64,000 bases of DNA, taken from positions 1 to 64,000 of the forward strand of contig JAPLNL010000032.1 of the NCBI GenBank assembly GCA_026692905.1. Reading direction: 5' to 3'. Under the pieces are notes generated by a model. That model made no database searches. It was not told the origin of the DNA and saw only the letters and a list, made by a program, of their open reading frames with translations. The DNA is from Planctomycetota bacterium (lineage in GTDB: Bacteria; Planctomycetota; Planctomycetia; Pirellulales; Pirellulaceae). Of this stretch, positions 52,298 through 62,550 are shown piece by piece (positions within the stretch are counted from its first letter, which is position 1; the number at the start of each line of letters is the position of its first letter). The translations under genes were made by a program, and so were the position numbers.

Positions 52298-55288
52298 ATG
52301 GCAACTGTAGAAATGGGACGCGAGCGTCGCAACAAATCACGTACAACACAAGAAGTTCGAGGCGAACGATCTGGGCTAAAAATCGAAACGCGATTTTGCC
52401 CAACCAGCGTGGCAACTCCGTTCGACACGGTTCAATGGGAGACCCGTAGCGCTGCGATCAAGGACGAGAGCGGAAAGGTTCTTTTTGAACAAACGAATTG
52501 CGAAGTTCCTACAGGTTGGAGCCAATTGGCTACCAACGTTGTGGTAAGCAAATATTTCTACGGCGATCCGACCAACGTTGAGGAACGTGAGTATTCCGTT
52601 CGTCAGCTTATCCATCGTGTAACACGCACGATCACGGACTGGGGAATTGCCGACGGATACTTCGATACTGCTGAAGATGGCGAAAACTTCTATCGCGACC
52701 TAAGTTGGCTTTGCTTGCACCAACACGGAGCATTCAATTCGCCCGTTTGGTTCAATGTCGGACTCTATCAGCAATACAACGTCGTCGGCACCAAATGCAA
52801 TTGGCGTTACAACGTCGAAGCCGGTCAAGTCGAACAGCCTGAGAATCCATACGAATATCCTCAAGGGTCAGCCTGCTTTATCCAAAGCGTGGATGACAAC
52901 ATGGAAGACATCATGCGACTCGCAACGAGCGAAGCCATGCTGTTTAAGTTTGGTTCGGGAACCGGTACGGACTTGTCGACCATCCGCAGCAGTCGCGAAA
53001 AGCTTTCTGGCGGTGGCAAGCCGAGCGGCCCGCTCTCGTTCATGCGAGTGTACGACCAGATCGCTGCTGTTGTTAAGTCTGGTGGTAAGACTCGACGCGC
53101 AGCCAAAATGCAGTCCATCAAAGTCTGGCACCCAGATATCATGGAATTCATCGAGTGCAAGTGGAAAGAAGAACAAAAAGCCCACGCGCTCATTCGCGAA
53201 GGATACGAAGCCAACTTCAACGGCGAAGCGTACTCCTCCGTCATGTTTCAAAACGCTAACCTGTCCGTTCGATTGACGGACGAGTTCATGAATGCGGTTT
53301 CCGAGAACAAGGTCTGGAAGACCCGTTGGGTCAGCGACAAGTGCGATATCGAACCGCCAACCTACCAAGCCAAAGACGTTCTAAATCGGATGGCCGAATG
53401 CGCTTGGCACTGCGGTGACCCTGGGGTTCAGTATGACACGACCATCAACAAGTGGCATACCTGCCCAAACAGCGGCCGCATCAACGCCAGCAATCCTTGT
53501 TCGGAATACATGTTCTTGGACAACACTGCTTGCAATCTTTCTTCCATCAACTTGATGAAGTATCGAGGGCCAGATGGTGTATTCGATGCGGATGGTTTCG
53601 TTGCAACCTGCCGACTCTTCTTGATTGCTCAAGAAATTTTGGTCGACCATGCGAGCTACCCAACAGATCGGATCGCCCACAACAGCCACTTGTTCCGTCC
53701 GCTTGGATTGGGATATGCGAATATTGGTTCGTTGATTATGACCAGCGGTGCGGCCTACGATTCAGCTGCAGGGCACAGCATGTGCGGGGCGATCACCGCC
53801 TTGCTGCATGGTGCTGCTAATTTGGCTAGCGCTGAAATCGCCGGCGTGGTCGGTACCTTTACGGAGTACCCTGACAACGCGGAGCCCATGATGCGGGTCA
53901 TGCAAATGCACCGCAACGCCGTCGAGCAGATCGATCCAAGCGGACCAGCCTACCTCAAGGATGCGGCTCGAAACATTTGGGATCGCGTTCTAGAGCAGGG
54001 CGCTCGCAATGGCTTCCGAAACGCTCAGGCAACCGTGTTGGCACCAACAGGCACTATCAGCTTTATGATGGACTGCGATACGACCGGTATCGAGCCGGAT
54101 ATCGCATTGGTCAAGTACAAGCAACTGGCCGGCGGCGGCATGCTCAAGATCTTGAACCGATCCGTGTCGCTCGGCTTGAAGACGCTCGGCTATTCGCCTG
54201 AGCAAATCGTCGAAATCGAGAAGCACATCAGCGAAAAGGATACGATCGAGGGAGCGCCGTATCTCAAGGACGAGCACTTGTCCGTTTTCGATTGTGCATT
54301 CAAGCCAGCCAACGGCACTCGAAGTATTCGATGGCAAGCTCACGTCGAAATGATGGCCGCTGCTCAACCCTTTTTGTCTGGCGCGATTAGCAAGACGGTC
54401 AATATGCCTTCCGACAGTACCATGGCGGATATTTCCGAAGCGTATTTCTGGGGTTGGGAACTCGGTCTCAAGGCCATTGCGATTTACCGCGATGGCTCGA
54501 AACAAAGCCAGCCGCTTTCGACCAAAAGCGAAGGCAAGAAGGCCGAAGATGCAGCAGCCGCTGCGGAAGAAAAGGTGGTTTACAAGCCGCGTCGTGAACG
54601 ATTGCCTGATACCCGTAACTCGGTTACTCACAAGTTCAGTATCAGTGGTCACGAAGGGTACATCAACGTTGGCCTCTACCCAGACGGTCGCCCCGGTGAA
54701 GTGTTCATCACCATGGCCAAAGAGGGTAGCACGATCGGCGGTTTGATGGATAGTTTCGGGACGGCGACTTCCATTTCGCTTCAGTACGGCGTGCCGCTCG
54801 AGGTCTTGGTCAACAAGTTCAGCAATACACGATTCGAGCCGATGGGTCACACCACAAATCCGGATATTCGTATCGCCAAGAGCTTGGTCGACTACATCTT
54901 CCGTTGGCTAGGGTTGACCTTCTTGGATAGCTATCGCGAAGAACAAAAGGCCAAGGCCGAGATTCTCGCTGCATCGAAGGCGGATTCAGCCAAGGTTGCA
55001 CCGGTAGCCCCGAAGGTGGCTAGCAATTTGACCAAGACGCCCGTCAATGGAAATGGCGCCGAGGTTTCGAACCGAAGTAGTAGCTACACGAACGCTAGGT
55101 TCGTCGGCTTTGACGAACTAAAAAGCCGAGCACCGATGAAAGAGTCGGCCAAGATGGATTCGCGAGACGGTCAATTTGCCGGCTTCCAAAGCGATGCTCC
55201 GAGTTGCGACAGCTGTGGCTCGATCACGGTTCGCAACGGCAACTGCTACTTGTGCCACAACTGTGGTAACAGTCTCGGTTGCAGCTGA
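52298..55288 (+). CDS. nrdJ: Adenosylcobalamin-dependent ribonucleotide reductase
   Basis: Class II enzyme that makes deoxyribonucleotides with coenzyme B12, independent of oxygen. 996 residues from ATG 52298; upstream in-frame codons lack homology. An early GDP...WGIADGYF region, HQHGAFNSPVWFNVGL, CFIQSVDDNMEDI, FKFGSGTGTDLSTIRSS, the NPCSEYMFLDN active-site block and NLSSINLMKY, and TGTISFMMDCDTTGIEP are class II features. An internal Ala/Glu/Lys linker (about 755-770) precedes a second domain. The last 40 residues hold a zinc-ribbon-like CDSCGS...CYLCHNCGNS and C-terminal cysteines for thiol transfer. It is monocistronic, ended by a strong terminator. Confidence 0.95.
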   Translation: MATVEMGRERRNKSRTTQEVRGERSGLKIETRFCPTSVATPFDTVQWETRSAAIKDESGKVLFEQTNCEVPTGWSQLATNVVVSKYFYGDPTNVEEREYSVRQLIHRVTRTITDWGIADGYFDTAEDGENFYRDLSWLCLHQHGAFNSPVWFNVGLYQQYNVVGTKCNWRYNVEAGQVEQPENPYEYPQGSACFIQSVDDNMEDIMRLATSEAMLFKFGSGTGTDLSTIRSSREKLSGGGKPSGPLSFMRVYDQIAAVVKSGGKTRRAAKMQSIKVWHPDIMEFIECKWKEEQKAHALIREGYEANFNGEAYSSVMFQNANLSVRLTDEFMNAVSENKVWKTRWVSDKCDIEPPTYQAKDVLNRMAECAWHCGDPGVQYDTTINKWHTCPNSGRINASNPCSEYMFLDNTACNLSSINLMKYRGPDGVFDADGFVATCRLFLIAQEILVDHASYPTDRIAHNSHLFRPLGLGYANIGSLIMTSGAAYDSAAGHSMCGAITALLHGAANLASAEIAGVVGTFTEYPDNAEPMMRVMQMHRNAVEQIDPSGPAYLKDAARNIWDRVLEQGARNGFRNAQATVLAPTGTISFMMDCDTTGIEPDIALVKYKQLAGGGMLKILNRSVSLGLKTLGYSPEQIVEIEKHISEKDTIEGAPYLKDEHLSVFDCAFKPANGTRSIRWQAHVEMMAAAQPFLSGAISKTVNMPSDSTMADISEAYFWGWELGLKAIAIYRDGSKQSQPLSTKSEGKKAEDAAAAAEEKVVYKPRRERLPDTRNSVTHKFSISGHEGYINVGLYPDGRPGEVFITMAKEGSTIGGLMDSFGTATSISLQYGVPLEVLVNKFSNTRFEPMGHTTNPDIRIAKSLVDYIFRWLGLTFLDSYREEQKAKAEILAASKADSAKVAPVAPKVASNLTKTPVNGNGAEVSNRSSSYTNARFVGFDELKSRAPMKESAKMDSRDGQFAGFQSDAPSCDSCGSITVRNGNCYLCHNCGNSLGCS

Positions 55289-55312
55289 TTTTTTAGTTGC
55301 ATTAGGAAATCC

Positions 55313-55344
55313 AAAGGCCAAAGCAAGTGCTTTGGCCTTTTTTT
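55313..55344 (+). terminator. Rho-independent terminator after nrdJ
   Basis: AAAGGCCAAAGC (55313-55324) and its exact complement (55329-55340) form a 12-bp perfect stem with a four-base loop (AAGT), followed by TTTT (55341-55344). It lies 25 nt after the nrdJ stop and separates nrdJ from the five-gene operon. Confidence 0.92.
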
Positions 55345-55572
55345 GTCGTTGACGCGGCAACTACTCGACCTGACAAAAAGCTATACTGACACAGCCGACA
55401 AATTTCGATTCGTTAACTTGAGTCAGCGATTTGCTGCTCGTGAAAGTGGGAAGACGCTCCTAGCGTCTCATACTCACGTTTGTCGACTACGTCTATACTT
55501 TCGAATTACGGTAGCAGACGTCGTTCGGATTTGGACAGATCGAAGTTGGGCGCATGATGAAGGAGCAATAAA

Positions 55573-56535
55573 TTGGGTATGCGTATCACGGCAGTGAAAA
55601 TGGCGGTACCGCCACGCATTCAAACGGCTGACGAGTTGGCATCTCTTATCCATCGCAGCGAAGATTGGATTCTGCAACATACTGGGGTCGCATTTCGTCG
55701 TGTTGCGGACGATGACGTTTCCCCGGCACAGCTTGCAGCTGTTGCGGCCAAGGAGGCAATTGAGGCAACCGGCACGCCTGATCTGATTTTGTACGCAGGC
55801 GCCTTAACACAGCAATTGGTGCCGGATACATCAGCCTTCGTCCAACGTGAGCTTGGACTCGATGGTGTACCAAGCTTTTCGGTCAATCAAACTTGCTTGT
55901 CGTTCATTGCGGCTCTTCAAGTCGCGGACGGATTGCTGCGAGTTGGCACTTACACAAGGGTCTTGATTTGCGCAGGGGAATTGGCCACGCGTGGACGCAG
56001 TTTCAACGAGCCAGAGTCGGCCGCACTTTTGGGAGATGGTGCCGCGGCTGCAATGGTCGAATATTCTTCGGAAAGCGATAGTGACCTAATCAGCTCCAGC
56101 CTTGAAACTTGGTCCGAAGGCATTGAATTGTGCTCGGTGCGAGCAGGAAACCATCCTCCGCCGCGGCCAGATATGTCCCATGATGCTTTGTTTTGTTTTC
56201 ACATGCTCGGTCCACAGCTCTACCGCTTTGTTCGTCCACGCCTTCGCCGTTTTTTGACCCACTTTTTGGCAACGGCTGGGTCTAGCATCGATCAAGTGCA
56301 ACTGGTTGTTCCACACCAAGCTTCCGGGCCAGGTCTGAGATTGCTTGAGCAGTCCGGGTTTTCGACCGAACGCATCGTGAATATTGTTGGCGATTACGGC
56401 AATTGCGTTGCCGCATCCATTCCTATGGCATTGGCCGTAGCTGTCGAAGAGGGGCGCATTTCGCGGGGGGATCAAGTCCTATTGGTTGGCACAGCCGCTG
56501 GCGTTTCTCTAGGAGCCGCGCTTCTCCGATGGTAG
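55573..56535 (+). CDS. KASIII-like 3-oxoacyl synthase, operon gene 1
   Basis: 320 residues of thiolase-fold condensing enzyme that should condense an acyl-CoA (or acyl-ACP) with a second acyl unit. The start is TTG at 55573: a strong Shine-Dalgarno GAAGGAG (55559-55565) lies 7 nt before it, while ATG at 55579 would be 13 nt away. Triad Cys108 (VNQTCLSF), His248 (VVPHQASG) and Asn277 (YGNCVAAS) is complete. ESAALLGDGAAAAMVEY is the usual FabH-type block. It resembles FabH/OleA/ChlB6-type enzymes; the exact subgroup cannot be told. The next gene overlaps it by 7 nt. The region 55345-55572 should hold the operon promoter; no clear one is seen. Confidence 0.88.
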   Translation: MGMRITAVKMAVPPRIQTADELASLIHRSEDWILQHTGVAFRRVADDDVSPAQLAAVAAKEAIEATGTPDLILYAGALTQQLVPDTSAFVQRELGLDGVPSFSVNQTCLSFIAALQVADGLLRVGTYTRVLICAGELATRGRSFNEPESAALLGDGAAAAMVEYSSESDSDLISSSLETWSEGIELCSVRAGNHPPPRPDMSHDALFCFHMLGPQLYRFVRPRLRRFLTHFLATAGSSIDQVQLVVPHQASGPGLRLLEQSGFSTERIVNIVGDYGNCVAASIPMALAVAVEEGRISRGDQVLLVGTAAGVSLGAALLRW

Positions 56536-58439
56536 ATACGCGTGTTGTCAACTTAGTTAAGGAACTGTTCGGAAGCCGAGTCCTTCGCATCTTAGTCACT
56601 GGAGGAACTGGCTTCGTTGGCTCAACAGTTGCCAAACTGCTAGCCGAAGCCGGACAAAAAGTGACCGTGACGGGTCGCAATCGATACAAAACAAGCCGCT
56701 TGTGGCACCCCAAAATTGATTTTGTCGTATCCGATATTCGCGATCCATCATCTGTGAATACGATTTGTCTTGGGCACGATGCTGTTATTCACGCAGCAGC
56801 GTTCGCGGCGACTTGGGGAGATGCAGCGGAATTTTATGCCGTCAATGTTCAGGGCACTCAGAACATAGTAAATGCGTGTCGCAGTCGGCCCGACGTGCGA
56901 GTCGTGCATGTATCGTCGACCGCAATCCACTTTGAGTTTAGCGACAAACAAGGCGTCGGAGAAGACGCTGTTTTGCCAAAACAATTTGCATGCGAATACG
57001 CGAAAAGCAAAGCGGAAGCAGAGAGTGTGATCAGGCAAGGAGTTGAAAACGGCCTAAACGCAATCACCCTACGAGCGAGAGCCGTGTTTGGCCCAGGTGA
57101 CAATAGCCTCCTTCCTCGTCTTCTTGTCGCTGCCGGCAAAGGAAGTTTGCCTCAAATAGGCGACGGCAACAACATCGTCGATCTTACGTATGTCGACAAC
57201 TTGGCATACGCTTTGTGCTTGGCCATCTTGAGAGGAGAGCCGGGCAGTGTTTGCACCATAACGAATGAAGAGCCAGTTTCCCTTTGGCCAACCCTCAATC
57301 GGATCTTCGAGAGCCTGGGACTAGCAACCACGCGACGGCGCATTACGTACACAACAGCAATGTTTGCGGCCCAAGCCGCATCGACCTGGCATCGGCTGCT
57401 TCAAAGCAGAGGTGAGCCCAAGCTAACGACTTATAGCGTTGGTTTGTTGGCCAAGAGCCAGACGTTTTCGCCAGAGGCGGCTCATAAGTTGCTGGGCTAT
57501 CGGCCTATTGTTTCGATGGAGCAAGGAACGGAGCAAACGCTGCAATCACTGAGGGCAAACGACGATGGCCAAGCAAGCTGTTCGGTCGAGCTAACGCTGT
57601 TCACGACTGGCTACACACCACAACCCTTCTTCTTGGCTGAGCGAGGTCGCGGAAGATCCAAAGAACCTTTTCATGCAATCTGCGCTTTGATCAAACACCC
57701 TCGACATGGCCTCTTTCTTTTCGACACGGGCTATTCGCCAGCCTTTTACGGAGCCTCGCATCGCTTTCCCTATAGCGTTTATGGATTCTTGAGTCCTTTG
57801 GTTCATTCAACGTCGCTGACGATACGAGCCCAACTCAAGGAACGTGGAATCGAACCGCATGAGATTCGAGGCATCATCGTTTCGCATTTCCATGCCGATC
57901 ATGTCGCAGGGTTGTGCGACTTTGATCAATCTGAGTTTATAGCCTCACAAACAGCTTGGGACGATGTGAAGAATCGTCAAGCCTTCTCGGCGTTGAAGCG
58001 AGGGTTCTTGCCAGCCTTGCTGCCAAATGACTTTGCCGAGCGAATCCGGCCAATCGAGCACTTTCATGATCCCGGAATCGGCCCATTCAAGCATACACAC
58101 GATTTGTTCGGTGACGGTAGTGTGCGTCTTATTCCCATCCCTGGCCACGCTCGCGGTCAAATCGGAGCCTTAGTTCAGTCAGGGCCAAGTGAAAAAACGT
58201 TTCTGGCCGCGGACGCCACATGGACTCTTGCATCGCTGCGAGCAAATAAACTCCCTCATTGGTTAACGTACAGCTTCATCGATTCGGTGACGGATCTTAA
58301 GAGAACCCTCGCGCAATTGCATGCTTTTTCTAAGCAATATCCTACGATCGACATTGTTCCAACCCATTGCCCTGAAATCGCAAAGCGAAATGGTTTCGAT
58401 GCTGTCGTTCGGGAGCGATTGGAGCGAAGCTCGCAATGA
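56529..58439 (+). CDS. Fusion of NAD-dependent sugar-epimerase-like reductase and MBL-fold hydrolase, operon gene 2
   Basis: 636 residues, two enzymes in one chain. Residues about 1-355: extended SDR with TGGTGFVG (24-31) for NAD(P), catalytic Y157-AKS-K161, related to 3-beta-hydroxysteroid dehydrogenase/OleD-type ketone reductases. Residues about 360-636: metallo-beta-lactamase fold with VSHFHADHVAGL (His453, His455, Asp457, His458), GHARGQIG (His540) and FLAADATWT, likely a hydrolase for a lactone or (thio)ester. The start ATG 56529 overlaps the KASIII stop by 7 nt. An upstream frame start exists but lies inside the KASIII gene. The fusion suggests successive steps on one intermediate. Confidence 0.85.
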   Translation: MVDTRVVNLVKELFGSRVLRILVTGGTGFVGSTVAKLLAEAGQKVTVTGRNRYKTSRLWHPKIDFVVSDIRDPSSVNTICLGHDAVIHAAAFAATWGDAAEFYAVNVQGTQNIVNACRSRPDVRVVHVSSTAIHFEFSDKQGVGEDAVLPKQFACEYAKSKAEAESVIRQGVENGLNAITLRARAVFGPGDNSLLPRLLVAAGKGSLPQIGDGNNIVDLTYVDNLAYALCLAILRGEPGSVCTITNEEPVSLWPTLNRIFESLGLATTRRRITYTTAMFAAQAASTWHRLLQSRGEPKLTTYSVGLLAKSQTFSPEAAHKLLGYRPIVSMEQGTEQTLQSLRANDDGQASCSVELTLFTTGYTPQPFFLAERGRGRSKEPFHAICALIKHPRHGLFLFDTGYSPAFYGASHRFPYSVYGFLSPLVHSTSLTIRAQLKERGIEPHEIRGIIVSHFHADHVAGLCDFDQSEFIASQTAWDDVKNRQAFSALKRGFLPALLPNDFAERIRPIEHFHDPGIGPFKHTHDLFGDGSVRLIPIPGHARGQIGALVQSGPSEKTFLAADATWTLASLRANKLPHWLTYSFIDSVTDLKRTLAQLHAFSKQYPTIDIVPTHCPEIAKRNGFDAVVRERLERSSQ

Positions 58440-59596
58440 AGCGCATTCTCTTGACCGGGGCACGAGCGCCAGTAACACTCGACTTGGTGCGGCACTTTCA
58501 TCGATCCGGGCATGAAGTCTACTTGGCGGATAGCATCCATCTTCCCCTGGCACGACTAAGCCGATTTGCAAAGCGAACCTTTGTCGTTTCCAAACCAGTC
58601 CACAACCCTTCGCAGTTTGTCCAAGACTTAGCGACCATTGCTCGCAACTACCGGATCGATCTCGTTGTCCCTACCTGCGAAGAGATCTTTTACGTTTCTT
58701 CCCTCCTCGAATTGTTCCCCGATCACACGAAAGTCTTCTCGGAACCGTTGCCGAAGCTCGAGATATTGCACAACAAGTGGAAGTTTGTCCAACAAGTTTC
58801 GAACCGAGGAGGTCCGGTTCAAGCTCCCGAAACGCATTTGATTGCAAGTCAGCAGGAACTATCCCCGTGGACTGCTCACCCGCAGCTATCCGATTGGGTG
58901 TTCAAGCCGGTGTATTCTCGTTTTGCGTCGAGGACGCTTGTTGGTCCAACGAGCCAAGAAATCGCCAAGCTATGCCCAACGACGGTAGACCCCTGGGTGG
59001 CACAACGCCGAATTGTCGGCCAAGAGTTTTCGACATACAGCCTAGCGCATCAGGGGAAACTGCGAGCGCATGCATGCTATCGATCGAAGTATCGCGCCGG
59101 ACTTGGTTCTGGTATCTATTTCCTCACAGTGGACGACGCGCGCATACGGGAGTTCGTTCAATCGTTTGTAACCCAACAGAAATTTACTGGTCAGCTTGGA
59201 TTCGACTTGATACAAGGACAGGACGGCAAGCTGTATGTTTTGGAGTGCAATCCGAGGGCTACTAGCGGTCTCCATATGCTTGCCGTGGAACCGCTCGCGT
59301 CGGCTTTCCTAGAATCCAGCGGTCCACTTTTGGAGCCAACATCGATGAGGCCGGCTATGCTCGCGTCGGTCATGCTCTTGTTTCCGTTCCCACAGACACT
59401 TCGACGAGGCGGAGTCCTAACGCTTTTCAAGGATATGCTGGCAGCTAGAGACGTCATGTTTGCTTGGAATGATCCGATGCCTGCTTTGTTGTCTCCGCTA
59501 TCCATTTTGGAGGTTCTCGTGACTGCTTGCCGCACGGGCAAGCCTTTAACTCGAGCGGCCACTTTCGATATCGAATGGAATGGGGAGCCGATGTGA
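58436..59596 (+). CDS. ATP-grasp ligase, operon gene 3
   Basis: 386 residues. Preatp-grasp Rossmann start MKRILLTGARAPVTLDLVRHF, then a nucleotide-binding central fold and the Mg-binding block YVLECNPRATSGLHML (Glu and Asn ligands) of the carbamoyl-phosphate-synthase-like group. Such enzymes join a carboxylate to an amine, thiol or other acceptor through an acyl phosphate. It overlaps gene 2 by 4 nt (ATGA). The acid and the acceptor are unknown. Relatives often occur in natural-product operons. Confidence 0.83.
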   Translation: MKRILLTGARAPVTLDLVRHFHRSGHEVYLADSIHLPLARLSRFAKRTFVVSKPVHNPSQFVQDLATIARNYRIDLVVPTCEEIFYVSSLLELFPDHTKVFSEPLPKLEILHNKWKFVQQVSNRGGPVQAPETHLIASQQELSPWTAHPQLSDWVFKPVYSRFASRTLVGPTSQEIAKLCPTTVDPWVAQRRIVGQEFSTYSLAHQGKLRAHACYRSKYRAGLGSGIYFLTVDDARIREFVQSFVTQQKFTGQLGFDLIQGQDGKLYVLECNPRATSGLHMLAVEPLASAFLESSGPLLEPTSMRPAMLASVMLLFPFPQTLRRGGVLTLFKDMLAARDVMFAWNDPMPALLSPLSILEVLVTACRTGKPLTRAATFDIEWNGEPM

Positions 59597-60738
59597 GCAG
59601 CCATTTGGTATCGTTGCAGGACGAAAAGTCCGGTTTCAAGCTCCTCCCCAGTGAGCAACAGTCTCGCGACGGGCAGTGGATCGAAATGTTGTTGAAGTTG
59701 CCATCTCAAGACTTAGTCCGAAACGTTCAGACGCGATGGGCCTTGTTACGTGCGGGAGAGGTCACACTACCAACGACGATCAACGAAACCGAGTACGAAA
59801 ACTCCTATGTATGTTCGACTTATTCAGGTTGCGTTCTCTACCCGCAATCGGAGGTCAAGAAGATCGACAATGCCCTTGTTCAAACATCCATCTTAGCATT
59901 GGTAAAGGGAATGGGGCCGCCATTGCGTGCCGCAAGAATCAATCGCGTCGTTTGCGTCAATAATTGGCTGCTTTCGACCAATCTTTATTCGACGTTCGAC
60001 TTGGATTTGGTGCCCGAACTGACGAAGTTACTAACGTTTCGATTCCCAAAGCATGCCATCGCCTTTCGATCACTGAATGACGTTTCGAATGGCCCACTGA
60101 TTGAGCGCCTAAGCGAGGAAGGTTTTCTATTGGCTCCGAGTCGTCAGGTCTATTTCTTTGATGGAAAATCAGGTGAGTTCCTCTCCAAACAGAACAATAC
60201 CTGGGATCAGAAGCTTTTGAAAACGACTGACTACACCGTTGTTCCACATGATGAATTGAACGCTAGCGAGTCCGATCGGATCGAGGAATTGTATCGATTG
60301 CTTTATGTCGACAAATATTCTCTGCATAACCCGCAGTTTACGTCACTAATGTTGAACGAGTGTCGAAGTCGCCGATTGCTCACCATGTGGGGATTGCGAA
60401 ATGCGGATGGACGCTTGGATGGAATTGTCGGTACCTTTGATCGCGATGGTGTCATGACAGCGCCGGTTGTCGGATACGATACCGCATTGCCCAAAGAGTT
60501 GGGTTTGTATCGAATCTTAATGGCGATTGTGCTACGAGAAGCATCGCGTCTCAAATTGCGATTGAACCTCAGTAGCGGCGCATCGCACTTCAAACGCATT
60601 CGCGGAGGAGTACCTTGTATTGAATACACGGCAGTCTATTGCCGCCATCTACCGCTACCTTCCCGTTTGGCTTGGCTGGCGTTGGCTGGGTTAACGCGAT
60701 ACGTGGGTGAACCCATTTTACGAAAGTACCAGTTATGA
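59593..60738 (+). CDS. GNAT-like acyltransferase, operon gene 4
   Basis: 381 residues from GTG 59593, overlapping gene 3 by 4 nt (GTGA) with Shine-Dalgarno GGGGAG 5 nt upstream. ATG further upstream at 59527 would place its start inside gene 3. The C-terminal half (IEELYRLLYVDKYSLHNPQF, WGLRNADGRLDGIVGTFDRDG, LNLSSGASHFKRIRGG) looks like an N-acyltransferase/FemX-like GNAT fold; the N-terminal half is a second, less clear copy. The family call is moderate. It probably transfers an acyl or aminoacyl group in the pathway, but the substrate cannot be given. Confidence 0.68.
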   Translation: MSSHLVSLQDEKSGFKLLPSEQQSRDGQWIEMLLKLPSQDLVRNVQTRWALLRAGEVTLPTTINETEYENSYVCSTYSGCVLYPQSEVKKIDNALVQTSILALVKGMGPPLRAARINRVVCVNNWLLSTNLYSTFDLDLVPELTKLLTFRFPKHAIAFRSLNDVSNGPLIERLSEEGFLLAPSRQVYFFDGKSGEFLSKQNNTWDQKLLKTTDYTVVPHDELNASESDRIEELYRLLYVDKYSLHNPQFTSLMLNECRSRRLLTMWGLRNADGRLDGIVGTFDRDGVMTAPVVGYDTALPKELGLYRILMAIVLREASRLKLRLNLSSGASHFKRIRGGVPCIEYTAVYCRHLPLPSRLAWLALAGLTRYVGEPILRKYQL

Positions 60739-61748
60739 CGCCCGATCAAGGTCAACTTGCACAACACTGGTTCGTTGGCTGTGATGCCGCACAATTAGGC
60801 AAGCGCCCGTTTGGAATGACGGTGTTTGGTACCCCGCTTGTGATCTATCGTTCTTCTGATGGAATGGTTGTTGCCGAAGACCGTTGTCCACATCGCAATG
60901 CTCCCCTGTCGCAGGGGCTTGTGCAGGCTGGCGTCCTAAGATGTCCCTATCACGGGTGGGGCTTTGGCGTGGACGGGCGTTGCGTCGATGCTCCTGGGGT
61001 GTGCTCAGGGGACCTGCCCAATGTTTCTCTCAACCGTTGGCAAGTGCAAGAGTCTGACGGTTGGATTTGGGTTGCGAAAGCACAGGTGATTCCTAAGAAA
61101 CCGTTCTATCGCCCGTCGGTTGCGAACGACTCGGGCTATAGAGGATTCAATTTGGTGGCTGAGCTCGATTCGAACCTAGCCGATGCGATTGAAAATCTGC
61201 TCGATGGGACACATACGCCGTTCGTTCACTCGGGGCTCGTTCGCAGTTCGAGTGCTAAGCAGTCGTTTACAGCCTTGGTTCGCAGGCACGATGATTTTGT
61301 GGAAGCGGAGTACCGAGGCGAGGCGAAACAGAACGGCTTCATTTCCAAATGGTTCGAACCGGATCGCGAGGTCAGCTTCGGCCGTTTTGTCCCGCCCTGT
61401 ACTGCTGAATTGGAGTATCGGTCCACGCGTCGGATCGAGCTACAAGTGGTGGCTCACTTTACTCCGACGATCGCGGGGAAGCTGAAAGTCTTTGTTCGTT
61501 GTTACCTACCTCACGGAAGACTGCGAGCCTCTTGGCGTTATGCAGTTGTAAAGCCGTTCTTTCGCAAGGTACTCCATCAAGATCGAGCGATTCTGAAACA
61601 ACAACAGTGGAACATCGCGAGATTTGGGAAACAGGGCTACACAAACTGGCGAGCAGACTTGCTCAGACCATGGATCGATACTTGGCTAGCAACTGGCGAA
61701 TTTCCTGCTCAACCGCATGGACCTGTTGAGGTTCCCTTTCACCTCTAA
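60735..61748 (+). CDS. Rieske [2Fe-2S] mononuclear-iron oxygenase, operon gene 5
   Basis: 337 residues, single-component oxygenase subunit. The Rieske centre is Cys51-P-His53 with Cys70-PY-His73 (CPHRN and CPYHGWGF); the catalytic iron site is D157-GT-H160-TPFV-H165 in ENLLDGTHTPFVHSG. These enzymes hydroxylate, desaturate or demethylate using O2 and an external reductase, which is not in this operon. The start overlaps gene 4 by 4 nt (ATGA). Comparable Rieske enzymes tailor lipids, steroids and natural products. A final oxidation step on the operon product is the natural reading. Confidence 0.9.
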   Translation: MTPDQGQLAQHWFVGCDAAQLGKRPFGMTVFGTPLVIYRSSDGMVVAEDRCPHRNAPLSQGLVQAGVLRCPYHGWGFGVDGRCVDAPGVCSGDLPNVSLNRWQVQESDGWIWVAKAQVIPKKPFYRPSVANDSGYRGFNLVAELDSNLADAIENLLDGTHTPFVHSGLVRSSSAKQSFTALVRRHDDFVEAEYRGEAKQNGFISKWFEPDREVSFGRFVPPCTAELEYRSTRRIELQVVAHFTPTIAGKLKVFVRCYLPHGRLRASWRYAVVKPFFRKVLHQDRAILKQQQWNIARFGKQGYTNWRADLLRPWIDTWLATGEFPAQPHGPVEVPFHL

Positions 61749-61765
61749 GGGCAAGCAGCTCTGCT

Positions 61766-61903
61766 CTCCTCATCCCCCGGCCCCTTCTCCTCCCGAGGAG
61801 GAGAAGGGGAGGAAGAGTTGCTTCGCAATATTTGCCCTGGAAACCGTAACGCGGCGAGCGTCTGCGGCTCAGTTATGGATAATCCGCCGCAGGGGATGAG
61901 GAG
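61766..61903. repeat. Paired hairpin element, family B, copy 2
   Basis: Begins CTCCTCATCCCC and the CCCCTTCTCCTCC/GGAGGAGAAGGGG hairpin (to about 61812), runs through about 75 bp, and closes with GGGGATGAGGAG (61892-61903), the reverse complement of its start. It begins 18 nt after the Rieske stop and matches the arms of 11476-11746. Confidence 0.75.
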
Positions 61904-61907
61904 CCGA

Positions 61908-62075
61908 TCACTCTGGTGTCGTTTCCACCATCGCAATCATACTAATGTACTCGGCAAAGTCAGCATCTTCGCCTTGCAAAAGCGTAGGTAGCGCCCCTAC
62001 GAAAGACGTCTCGCCGATACCACTCTCATAAAGTCGCCCCACAAAAGCCAGCGTCGTCTTTGGTTGTGCGTAATG
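61908..62075 (-). pseudogene. Possible 3' coding remnant
   Basis: A minus-strand frame of about 55 codons between two stops reads TLAFVGRLYESGIGETSFVG and then EDADFAEYISMIAMVETTPE, ending 5 nt from the family B element. The residue mix looks protein-like, but no start codon fits and no family is recognised. It may be the tail of a gene eroded by repeat insertion, or chance. Confidence 0.25.
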
Positions 62076-62110
62076 TCATCGTGGCTCTTTGCGTGCGAAG
62101 GTGACGAGCT

Positions 62111-62302
62111 CTACGAAGTTGCGTCCCGTTTATTCCCGTCTTCGTCGTAACGCATGATTGCAAAGTAAGCAAACTCGACCAACAGGAAAAGCAGGATAAC
62201 CAAAAAGAACCAATTTTGAATCGCAGACATGATGACTACGACTGCGGCGAAGCAAACCCAAAGCTTCCAAGAATCCCGCCAAAAAGCGATCAATTGATTC
62301 AC
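62111..62302 (-). CDS. Small membrane protein of unknown function
   Basis: 63 residues from GTG at 62302. Two hydrophobic helices (LWVCFAAVVVIMSAI and FFLVILLFLLVEFAYFAIM) separated by QNW, with an N-terminal basic-aromatic start MNQLIAFWRDSWK and a charged C-terminal tail YDEDGNKRDATS. A possible Shine-Dalgarno AGGA lies about 12 nt upstream. No known family, but composition and length suggest a real two-helix small membrane protein. Confidence 0.5.
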   Translation of the reverse strand: MNQLIAFWRDSWKLWVCFAAVVVIMSAIQNWFFLVILLFLLVEFAYFAIMRYDEDGNKRDATS

Positions 62303-62512
62303 TGGACAAATATCCTGGTTTTTGTACGCGACAAATCAAATTTGCCAGCGGAGCGAAGTGGGATAATTAGAGGAACTCACCTAGCAACTCATGGTACCTA
62401 CACATCCAGAGTTGTCGAGGGACGTTGTTTTCCCGCGAGGAGAATGTGCCTGGATGGACAATCAACAATTGGGTTGTCGGAGCGAATTTGTGCCCGTAGC
62501 TCCCCAGCCAAC

Positions 62513-62550
62513 TAGTGCCCAATGTTCGCAACATGCTTGGTGTGCAAAAG
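62513..62550. repeat. Copy of the 6744-6782 intergenic segment
   Basis: TAGTGCCCAATG(T)TCGCAAC and then ATGCTTGGTGTGC match 6744-6782 (TTGTGCCCAATGCTCGCAAC...) with one internal mismatch over 32 bp. The two copies are in the same orientation, 56 kb apart, both in intergenic DNA. Confidence 0.8.

What the first reader, a model, noticed from the sequence alone, without database searches (positions are those of the whole stretch)
55573..61748. Overlapping five-gene biosynthetic operon: KASIII, SDR-MBL fusion, ATP-grasp, GNAT-like, Rieske oxygenase
Seen: each junction overlaps by 4-7 nt (ATGA or GTGA types), TTG and GTG starts supported by good Shine-Dalgarno spacing, and a strong terminator separates it from nrdJ. 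Known: KASIII and SDR pairs build and reduce beta-keto products, ATP-grasp enzymes ligate, MBL-fold enzymes hydrolyse, Rieske oxygenases hydroxylate. Inference: a dedicated pathway for an acyl-derived metabolite (lipid, lactone or signal). I know of no described cluster with this exact set, and the KASIII plus OleD-like pair recalls the Ole pathway but lacks recognisable OleB and OleC.
Basis: partly seen in the sequence, partly recalled or inferred. Interest (0 to 1): 0.85.

Follow-up and report, generated by a model that had tools for sequence, protein, structure and literature searches.

The report
Widespread unstudied lipid-type biosynthesis operon
Five overlapping bacterial genes form a pathway that probably joins fatty-acid-like chains and caps the product; versions of its core occur in very different bacteria, including some Escherichia coli, and I found no account of what it makes.

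Summary
The operon is real: KASIII, SDR-MBL fusion, ATP-grasp, GNAT-like and Rieske genes overlap by 7, 4, 4 and 4 nt behind nrdJ's terminator. It is a conserved but patchy cluster. In 20 of 20 distinct loci holding KASIII, SDR and MBL, from five phyla, SDR is directly followed by MBL; both are fused only in Planctomycetota. The nine such loci outside Planctomycetota/Acidobacteriota also hold an F390-synthetase-like adenylate-forming enzyme; that quartet is in 672 of 5426 complete E. coli genomes. The KASIII is neither housekeeping FabH nor OleA: 20 operon enzymes plus MxnB/CorB, chain-joining ketosynthases of myxopyronin/corallopyronin, separate from 31 FabH-model sequences (99/96-97); 18 of 18 checked have Val/Leu/Ile where OleA has its catalytic Glu. 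The GNAT-like protein models like MprF/FemX aminoacyltransferases, the ATP-grasp like PylC/PurK/RizA. Best reading: two-chain (or malonyl) Claisen condensation, reduction, hydrolytic release, then amine/aminoacyl capping and hydroxylation. The product is unknown. Nine literature searches aimed at the cluster showed no description; only open-licence papers are held and several listings were capped.

The parts
55313..55340 (+). Intrinsic terminator of the upstream nrdJ gene, which separates it from the operon
   Evidence: 12-bp stem, 4-nt loop, T tract
55573..56535 (+). KASIII (PRK07204-like ketosynthase, clade with MxnB/CorB), TTG start, Cys108-His248-Asn277 triad, Val83 at the place of OleA Glu117
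56529..58439 (+). Fusion protein: N-terminal extended SDR reductase (about residues 19-345, OleD-like) and C-terminal MBL-fold hydrolase (about 346-636) with a complete HxHxDH...H...D...H metal site
58436..59596 (+). ATP-grasp ligase related to PRK06849 (371 bits against a cut-off of 406)
59593..60738 (+). GNAT-fold transferase; among hits of known function its model is closest to MprF/L-PGS, aminoacyl-tRNA-dependent peptide synthases and FemX; GTG start
60735..61748 (+). Rieske [2Fe-2S] non-haem iron oxygenase with intact cluster motifs (CPHR, CPYHGW) and His-His-Asp iron site

Best explanation
A dedicated, patchily distributed and probably horizontally spreading biosynthetic operon for a small acyl-derived molecule. 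Shown by computation: the genes are conserved together and their catalytic motifs are intact. Inferred: (1) the KASIII joins two thioester chains by a Claisen condensation of the MxnB/CorB type, so the reacting alpha-carbon is an activated beta-keto (or malonyl-type) one rather than one deprotonated by an OleA-type Glu; (2) the SDR reduces the resulting keto group of a branched 2-alkyl-3-oxo chain to a hydroxyl; (3) the fused MBL hydrolyses the thioester or lactone and releases the hydroxy acid; (4) the ATP-grasp enzyme activates a carboxylate as acyl phosphate and couples it to an amine or amino acid; (5) the MprF/FemX-like GNAT protein adds an aminoacyl or acyl group; (6) the Rieske oxygenase, with ferredoxin and reductase supplied from elsewhere in the cell, hydroxylates the product. 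Steps 1-3 are the conserved core and steps 4-6 are tailoring. In other phyla the core has different neighbours: a desaturase, a fatty-acid hydroxylase and a PAP2 phosphatase (E. coli) or a family-21 glycosyltransferase (Fusobacterium), which points to a lipid-like core product.
For: SDR directly followed by MBL in 20 of 20 distinct loci with KASIII, SDR and MBL. In plasmids, 12 of 12 KASIII hits at E <= 1e-30 have the F390-like adenylate-forming gene within 3.5 kb (places compared), and 8 of 12 GNAT hits have the ATP-grasp gene within 3.5 kb. KASIII clade with MxnB/CorB at 99/96, apart from 31 FabH-model rows and from OleA. C-H-N triad in 18 of 18 operon KASIIIs; Val/Leu/Ile at the OleA Glu117 place in 18 of 18, as in MxnB/CorB, where the literature notes V94 in place of the PpyS Glu105 (PMC4578411, parts 1 and 2 of 3 read; PMC4901931, passages). 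SDR best match is OleD. MBL metal site intact. Folds of the GNAT and ATP-grasp models. Lipid-type neighbours in one E. coli locus and one Fusobacterium locus.
Against: No product is known and there is no ACP or malonyl-loading gene in the five-gene operon. MxnB/CorB share only 34-36% identity with the window KASIII and the FabHs 31-32%, a small difference, and PMC4578411 places MxnB/CorB within its own FabH clade. A KAS of the own genome outside the operon (C29) also has Leu at the OleA-Glu place, so an aliphatic residue there is not special to this clade. The SDR scores far below the OleD cut-off (205 against 580). 8 of 23 examined ATP-grasp loci hold no KASIII, SDR or MBL above 100 bits in the DNA held (some at contig ends), so the ATP-grasp family also works elsewhere. 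The Rieske gene is not found in L007, L011, L026 and L057, and neither GNAT nor Rieske in L009 and L013. Planctomycete loci have no adenylate-forming enzyme in the DNA held, so activation would have to come from general metabolism.
Confidence: 0.45

Rival explanations
1. Ordinary decarboxylative KASIII chemistry: an acyl-CoA plus malonyl-ACP gives a beta-keto acyl chain, the SDR makes a 3-hydroxy acid, the MBL releases it and the ATP-grasp/GNAT pair turns it into an N-acyl amino acid or amide, hydroxylated by the Rieske enzyme. One chain only.
For: The Cys-His-Asn triad is also that of the FabH rows; there is no OleA-type Glu; FabH structures are the next best PDB matches; identity to FabH is nearly as high as to MxnB/CorB.
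Against: Clade with chain-joining MxnB/CorB and separation from FabH; the best match of the SDR is the reductase for branched two-chain products.
Confidence: 0.3
2. A variant Ole pathway that makes a beta-lactone or olefin: KASIII as OleA, SDR as OleD, with OleC and OleB replaced.
For: SDR best matches OleD; an adenylate-forming enzyme sits in the cluster outside planctomycetes; the MBL resembles lactonases.
Against: KASIII not in the OleA clade and without the OleA Glu; no alpha/beta hydrolase or AMP-binding domain among the five proteins and no TIGR02304 match in the genome; a separate OleA-family KAS exists in the genome.
Confidence: 0.1
3. A degradation or signal-quenching operon: the MBL opens a lactone signal and the Rieske and SDR enzymes oxidise the product.
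For: The MBL part matches AHL lactonases (AttM model 81 bits, cut-off 390) with an intact metal site.
Against: A condensing enzyme, an ATP-grasp ligase and a transferase are biosynthetic; scores are far below the lactonase cut-offs.
Confidence: 0.08
4. A sterol C4-demethylation module like SdmAB, since the Rieske enzyme best matches SdmA and the SDR also matches SdmB.
For: NCBIfam hits SdmA 68 bits and SdmB 87 bits.
Against: Cut-offs are 600 bits; the SDR matches OleD far better (205 bits); the KASIII, MBL and ATP-grasp genes have no place in that pathway.
Confidence: 0.02

Closest known systems
MxnB / CorB, chain-interconnecting ketosynthases of myxopyronin and corallopyronin
   Same: Nearest KASIII by PDB search and by tree; same triad and the same Val at the OleA-Glu position
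   Different: 34-36% identity; MxnB/CorB work on PKS-borne chains (PMC4901931, passages), whereas this operon has no PKS but an SDR-MBL fusion, a ligase and a transferase
Ole (olefin / beta-lactone) pathway OleABCD
   Same: KASIII-superfamily enzyme plus an OleD-like SDR
   Different: No OleA Glu, not in the OleA clade, no OleB or OleC; extra MBL, ATP-grasp, GNAT and Rieske
PpyS / PyrS photopyrone and pseudopyronine synthases
   Same: Stand-alone KAS that joins two acyl chains (PMC4578411)
   Different: PpyS relies on Glu105; the operon KASIII has Val83 and has partner enzymes; PpyS itself was not in my trees
E. coli KASIII-SDR-MBL-TIGR02304 cluster beside narGHJI (no name found)
   Same: Homologous KASIII, SDR and MBL in the same order
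   Different: In L036 it has the adenylate-forming enzyme, PAP2, fatty-acid hydroxylase and desaturase instead of ATP-grasp, GNAT and Rieske; SDR and MBL are separate genes
MprF/L-PGS, FemX and Sba18/Sbb17 aminoacyl-tRNA-dependent transferases
   Same: Among the closest folds of the GNAT-like model (TM 0.41-0.52 over the query); the single best hit, 3frm, has no known function
   Different: Only 9-14% identity in those hits; tRNA use is not tested

Membership tests
Housekeeping FabH (TIGR00747) | Score above the model cut-off (292 bits) and position in the FabH clade | tested here: not met
   192-193 bits; outside 31 FabH-model rows at 99/97 (three of those rows, L130, L131 and L135, are themselves below the cut-off); the genome's own FabH is at C11 with 344 bits
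OleA | Clade with OleA and catalytic Glu117 reaching in from the partner subunit | tested here: not met
   Val83 at that place, separate clade
Ole pathway | OleB, OleC and OleD partners | tested here: not met
   SDR is OleD-like but below cut-off; no OleB- or OleC-type domain among the five proteins
MxnB/CorB chain-interconnecting KS | Common clade, C-H-N triad, no OleA/PpyS Glu | tested here: met
   Clade 99/96; whether MxnB/CorB lie inside or beside the operon group is unresolved (p-AU 0.39 for operon rows alone)
MxnB/CorB chain-interconnecting KS | Condensation of two beta-ketoacyl chains | not testable with these tools
   needs enzyme assay
PRK07204 KASIII (NF005541) | Score above the curated cut-off of 402 bits | tested here: not met
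   window 238 bits; cluster homologues of Paenibacillus and Pontibacillus pass with 425 and 445 bits, six others scored and the E. coli one do not
PRK06849 ATP-grasp (NF005315) | Score above the curated cut-off of 406 bits | tested here: not met
   371 bits; one of 9 matching genomes of the taxonomic family passes with 444; ATP-grasp residues conserved
MBL-fold dinuclear metallohydrolase | HxHxDH...H...D...H metal ligands | tested here: met
   all ligands present in the window; first three motifs in 22 of 22 sequences, last His column unaligned in 3
AHL lactonase (AttM/AiiA) | Score above the curated cut-offs of 390/375 bits | tested here: not met
   81 and 37.5 bits
Rieske non-haem iron oxygenase | CxH...CxxH cluster motif and 2-His-1-carboxylate iron site | tested here: met
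MprF/FemX aminoacyltransferase | GNAT-type fold similar to MprF/FemX | tested here: met
   model pLDDT 92; L-PGS E 6.8e-9, FemX E 1.9e-6; other GNAT enzymes score similarly
MprF/FemX aminoacyltransferase | Aminoacyl-tRNA as donor | not testable with these tools
   needs assay

The most novel reading that the evidence does not exclude
The core KASIII-SDR-MBL (with or without the TIGR02304-type enzyme) defines an unrecognised class of bacterial two-chain, mycolate-like or pyrone-derived lipids, made in Planctomycetota, Acidobacteriota, Bacillota, Pseudomonadota (including about an eighth of complete E. coli genomes) and Fusobacteriota. The planctomycete form is aminoacylated by an ATP-grasp/MprF-like pair and hydroxylated by a Rieske enzyme.
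Probability: 0.25. Interest if true: 0.85.

Novelty: new variant of a known kind. Interest (0 to 1): 0.62.

Why it matters
NCBIfam families whose names tell no product (PRK07204 KASIII, PRK06849 'hypothetical protein', TIGR02304 'F390 synthetase-related protein') turn out to sit in one widespread gene cluster. Its core occurs in E. coli, so the unknown product is open to direct genetic and chemical test. If the KASIII joins two chains, this would be a new route to branched lipids or lactones across several phyla.

Tried and rejected
Ole membership was rejected, FabH membership was rejected, and the sterol-demethylase and AHL-lactonase readings were rejected on scores. A TIGR02304 enzyme elsewhere in the own genome was sought and not found. 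PDB sequence searches with the ATP-grasp protein and with the ATP-grasp and GNAT alignments gave nothing useful, and the ATP-grasp protein has no phage hit. Among 10 flanking proteins of L002, L005, L026 and L031 none is an adenylate-forming enzyme. Empty-site test: nrdJ was found in 21 of 21 same-genus genomes. In 7 of them the DNA after nrdJ was fetched: by ORF lists none has the operon there, the same gene of about 200 codons follows in three, and other genes follow in the rest, so the place is variable but no clean empty site was shown. Five of the 7 had no ATP-grasp match; G899 and G900 were not searched for it. GC content of the operon does not stand out. Literature: nine searches aimed at the cluster, one at MxnB/CorB. 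The listings were capped (20 of 102, 15 of 1038, 15 of 417 and 10 of 399 papers listed). One search listed all 10 papers with F390 or CoF synthetase; passages of four were read. One of these, on ladderane lipids, mentions an F390-synthetase-annotated acyl-CoA ligase in a fatty-acid gene cluster of another bacterium; none describes this set.
Full report
Observation. The five genes lie at the stated coordinates on one strand with overlaps of 7, 4, 4 and 4 nt. Pfam and NCBIfam confirm KASIII, an epimerase-type SDR fused to an MBL domain, an ATP-grasp enzyme and a Rieske oxygenase; the fourth protein is just under the Pfam GNAT cut-off. An intrinsic terminator closes nrdJ upstream. The TTG start of the KASIII is backed by a good Shine-Dalgarno site and by ATG at the same place in L004 and L009. 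No ribosome site is evident before the Rieske start.

Conservation. The ATP-grasp protein found 8 loci in GTDB contigs and 18 plasmid records. Its family model, at the E limits used, matched 3 of 392 genomes of the phylum and 9 of 199 of the family, own genome included. Among the 14 same-genus genomes listed, 2 carry it, own genome included. The SDR-MBL protein matched 8 of 397 genomes of the class, two of them over the SDR part only, and 4 of 199 of the family, own genome included. The cluster is therefore patchy. Neighbourhoods were read with profiles built here from the proteins of the window and the F390-like protein of L010 (hits over 100 bits). After removing duplicates (L028, L029, L058 and L059 are the same contigs as L002, L009, L005 and L004), 20 loci hold KASIII, SDR and MBL: the window, L002, L003, L004, L005, L006, L009-L013, L026, L031, L036-L039, L041, L057 and L060. 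SDR is directly followed by MBL in 20 of 20. They are fused in 9 of these 20, all Planctomycetota; L007, whose contig starts inside the SDR, is also fused. L026, in another family of the own phylum, is not fused.

Results against full linkage. Of 23 distinct ATP-grasp loci that I examined through ATP-grasp searches (window, L002-L015, L026, L027, L030-L035), 13 hold KASIII, SDR and MBL. L007 is cut by the contig start, and L015 has MBL and the F390-like gene but no KASIII. Eight (L008, L014, L027, L030, L032, L033, L034 and L035) lack all three in the DNA held, some of them at contig ends. Of the 18 plasmid ATP-grasp records, 6 were opened through that search and two more (L039, L040) through other searches. 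In the plasmid collection a KASIII search (E <= 1e-30) gave 12 records, and all 12 have the F390-like adenylate-forming gene within 3.5 kb. Of 12 GNAT records, 8 have the ATP-grasp gene within 3.5 kb.

Two versions. The nine KASIII loci from other phyla (Pseudomonadota, Bacillota, Fusobacteriota: L010-L013, L036-L039, L041) also hold an F390-like adenylate-forming enzyme by my profile; the two scored against TIGR02304, L010 and L036, pass its cut-off. Four of these nine were found by searching with that enzyme, so the figure not chosen for it is the 12 of 12 above. None of the 11 KASIII loci from Planctomycetota and Acidobacteriota holds it in the DNA held (L003 and L004 are cut short), and the own genome has no TIGR02304 match. 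ATP-grasp, GNAT and Rieske recur together in Shinella, Rhizobium, Paraburkholderia (Rieske there in two pieces) and Holophagae. In the E. coli locus that I opened (L036) the quartet lies beside narGHJI and is followed by PAP2, a fatty-acid hydroxylase and a desaturase. The quartet itself is in 672 of 5426 complete E. coli genomes, 670 places on chromosomes and 2 on plasmids; in the Fusobacterium locus an SDR and a family-21 glycosyltransferase precede it. These neighbours suggest a lipid-like core product (inference).

KASIII. A tree of 56 rows puts 20 operon KASIIIs and MxnB/CorB on one side of a branch (99/96) and 31 FabH-model sequences, with one further KAS of the own genome, on another (99/97); OleA is apart. 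Whether MxnB/CorB lie inside or beside the operon group is open (p-AU 0.39). The Cys-His-Asn triad is complete in the 18 operon rows of the first tree. The place of OleA Glu117 holds Val, Leu or Ile in 18 of 18 operon rows, Val in MxnB and CorB, Phe in three FabHs, Thr in the own FabH and Glu in both OleA rows. Against its weight as a marker, the own non-operon KAS at C29 has Leu there too. PMC4578411 (parts 1 and 2 of 3 read) notes the same Val in MxnB and CorB and suggests that their substrate carbon, lying between two carbonyls, may need no Glu base. That paper also puts MxnB/CorB within FabH in its own tree, which counts against a firm split. The L026 enzyme of the own phylum groups with Pontibacillus and Fusobacterium (99/91), consistent with horizontal transfer.

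Other enzymes. The SDR keeps its TGxxGxxG and YxxxK motifs in the window, with variation elsewhere, and best matches OleD below cut-off. The first three MBL motifs are present in 22 of 22 sequences; the last His column is unaligned in 3. The Rieske CxH and CxxH motifs are present in 9 of 9 sequences where that part was aligned (L010 is in two pieces and only the second was aligned), and the iron-site His, His and Asp in 10 of 10; L060 is a reversed gene 1.3 kb from its cluster. The ATP-grasp model (pLDDT 92.7) is closest to PylC, a carbamoyl-phosphate-synthase-like protein, PurK and RizA. The GNAT model (pLDDT 92.4) is closest to 3frm (function unknown), L-PGS/MprF and Sba18/Sbb17, with FemX and ordinary acetyltransferases further down. 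The 50 hits listed are 8-15% identical, so donor and acceptor remain inferred.

Mechanism and novelty. I favour two-chain (or malonyl-type) condensation, reduction, release and capping, with moderate confidence. That the genes form one pathway is much firmer, at about 0.9 in my judgement. Literature searches showed no account of this cluster. They cover open-licence PubMed Central only and some listings were capped, so a description elsewhere is possible. The first-stage score of 0.85 is lowered because each enzyme family is known and the product is not. The E. coli link keeps the interest fairly high.

Noticed in passing
L045:883-1965 (own genome contig C48): A separate OleA-family KASIII (PRK09258, 409 bits) lies away from the operon, beside a gene that by eye looks like hemE.
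   Followed up: partly
L005:9290-10042, L031:11865-12530, L032:5678-6307: A SnoaL/DUF4440-like gene follows the Rieske gene in L005 and L031 (Pfam), and a similar ORF by eye in L032; none was noticed in the window or L002.
   Followed up: partly
L036 and E. coli genomes: The KASIII-SDR-MBL-TIGR02304 quartet occurs in 672 of 5426 complete E. coli genomes, including LF82 and ABU 83972. The 'plasmid' NZ_CP141085 holds genes that look chromosomal (narGHJI to rssB).
   Followed up: partly
L041: The Fusobacterium vincentii 'plasmid' record of 2.1 Mb looks like a chromosome entered among the plasmids.
   Followed up: no
L033:3-8390: An ATP-grasp relative lies beside a very large reading frame of 2795 codons with a weak SDR-like stretch (55 bits), perhaps a megasynthase.
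   Followed up: no
window 61749-62550: The stretch downstream of the operon matches the relative L002 in several pieces, some of them at more than one place, so it may hold repeats.
   Followed up: no
window 55286-55580: nrdJ is in 21 of 21 same-genus genomes searched, but among 7 fetched the DNA after it differs between genomes.
   Followed up: partly
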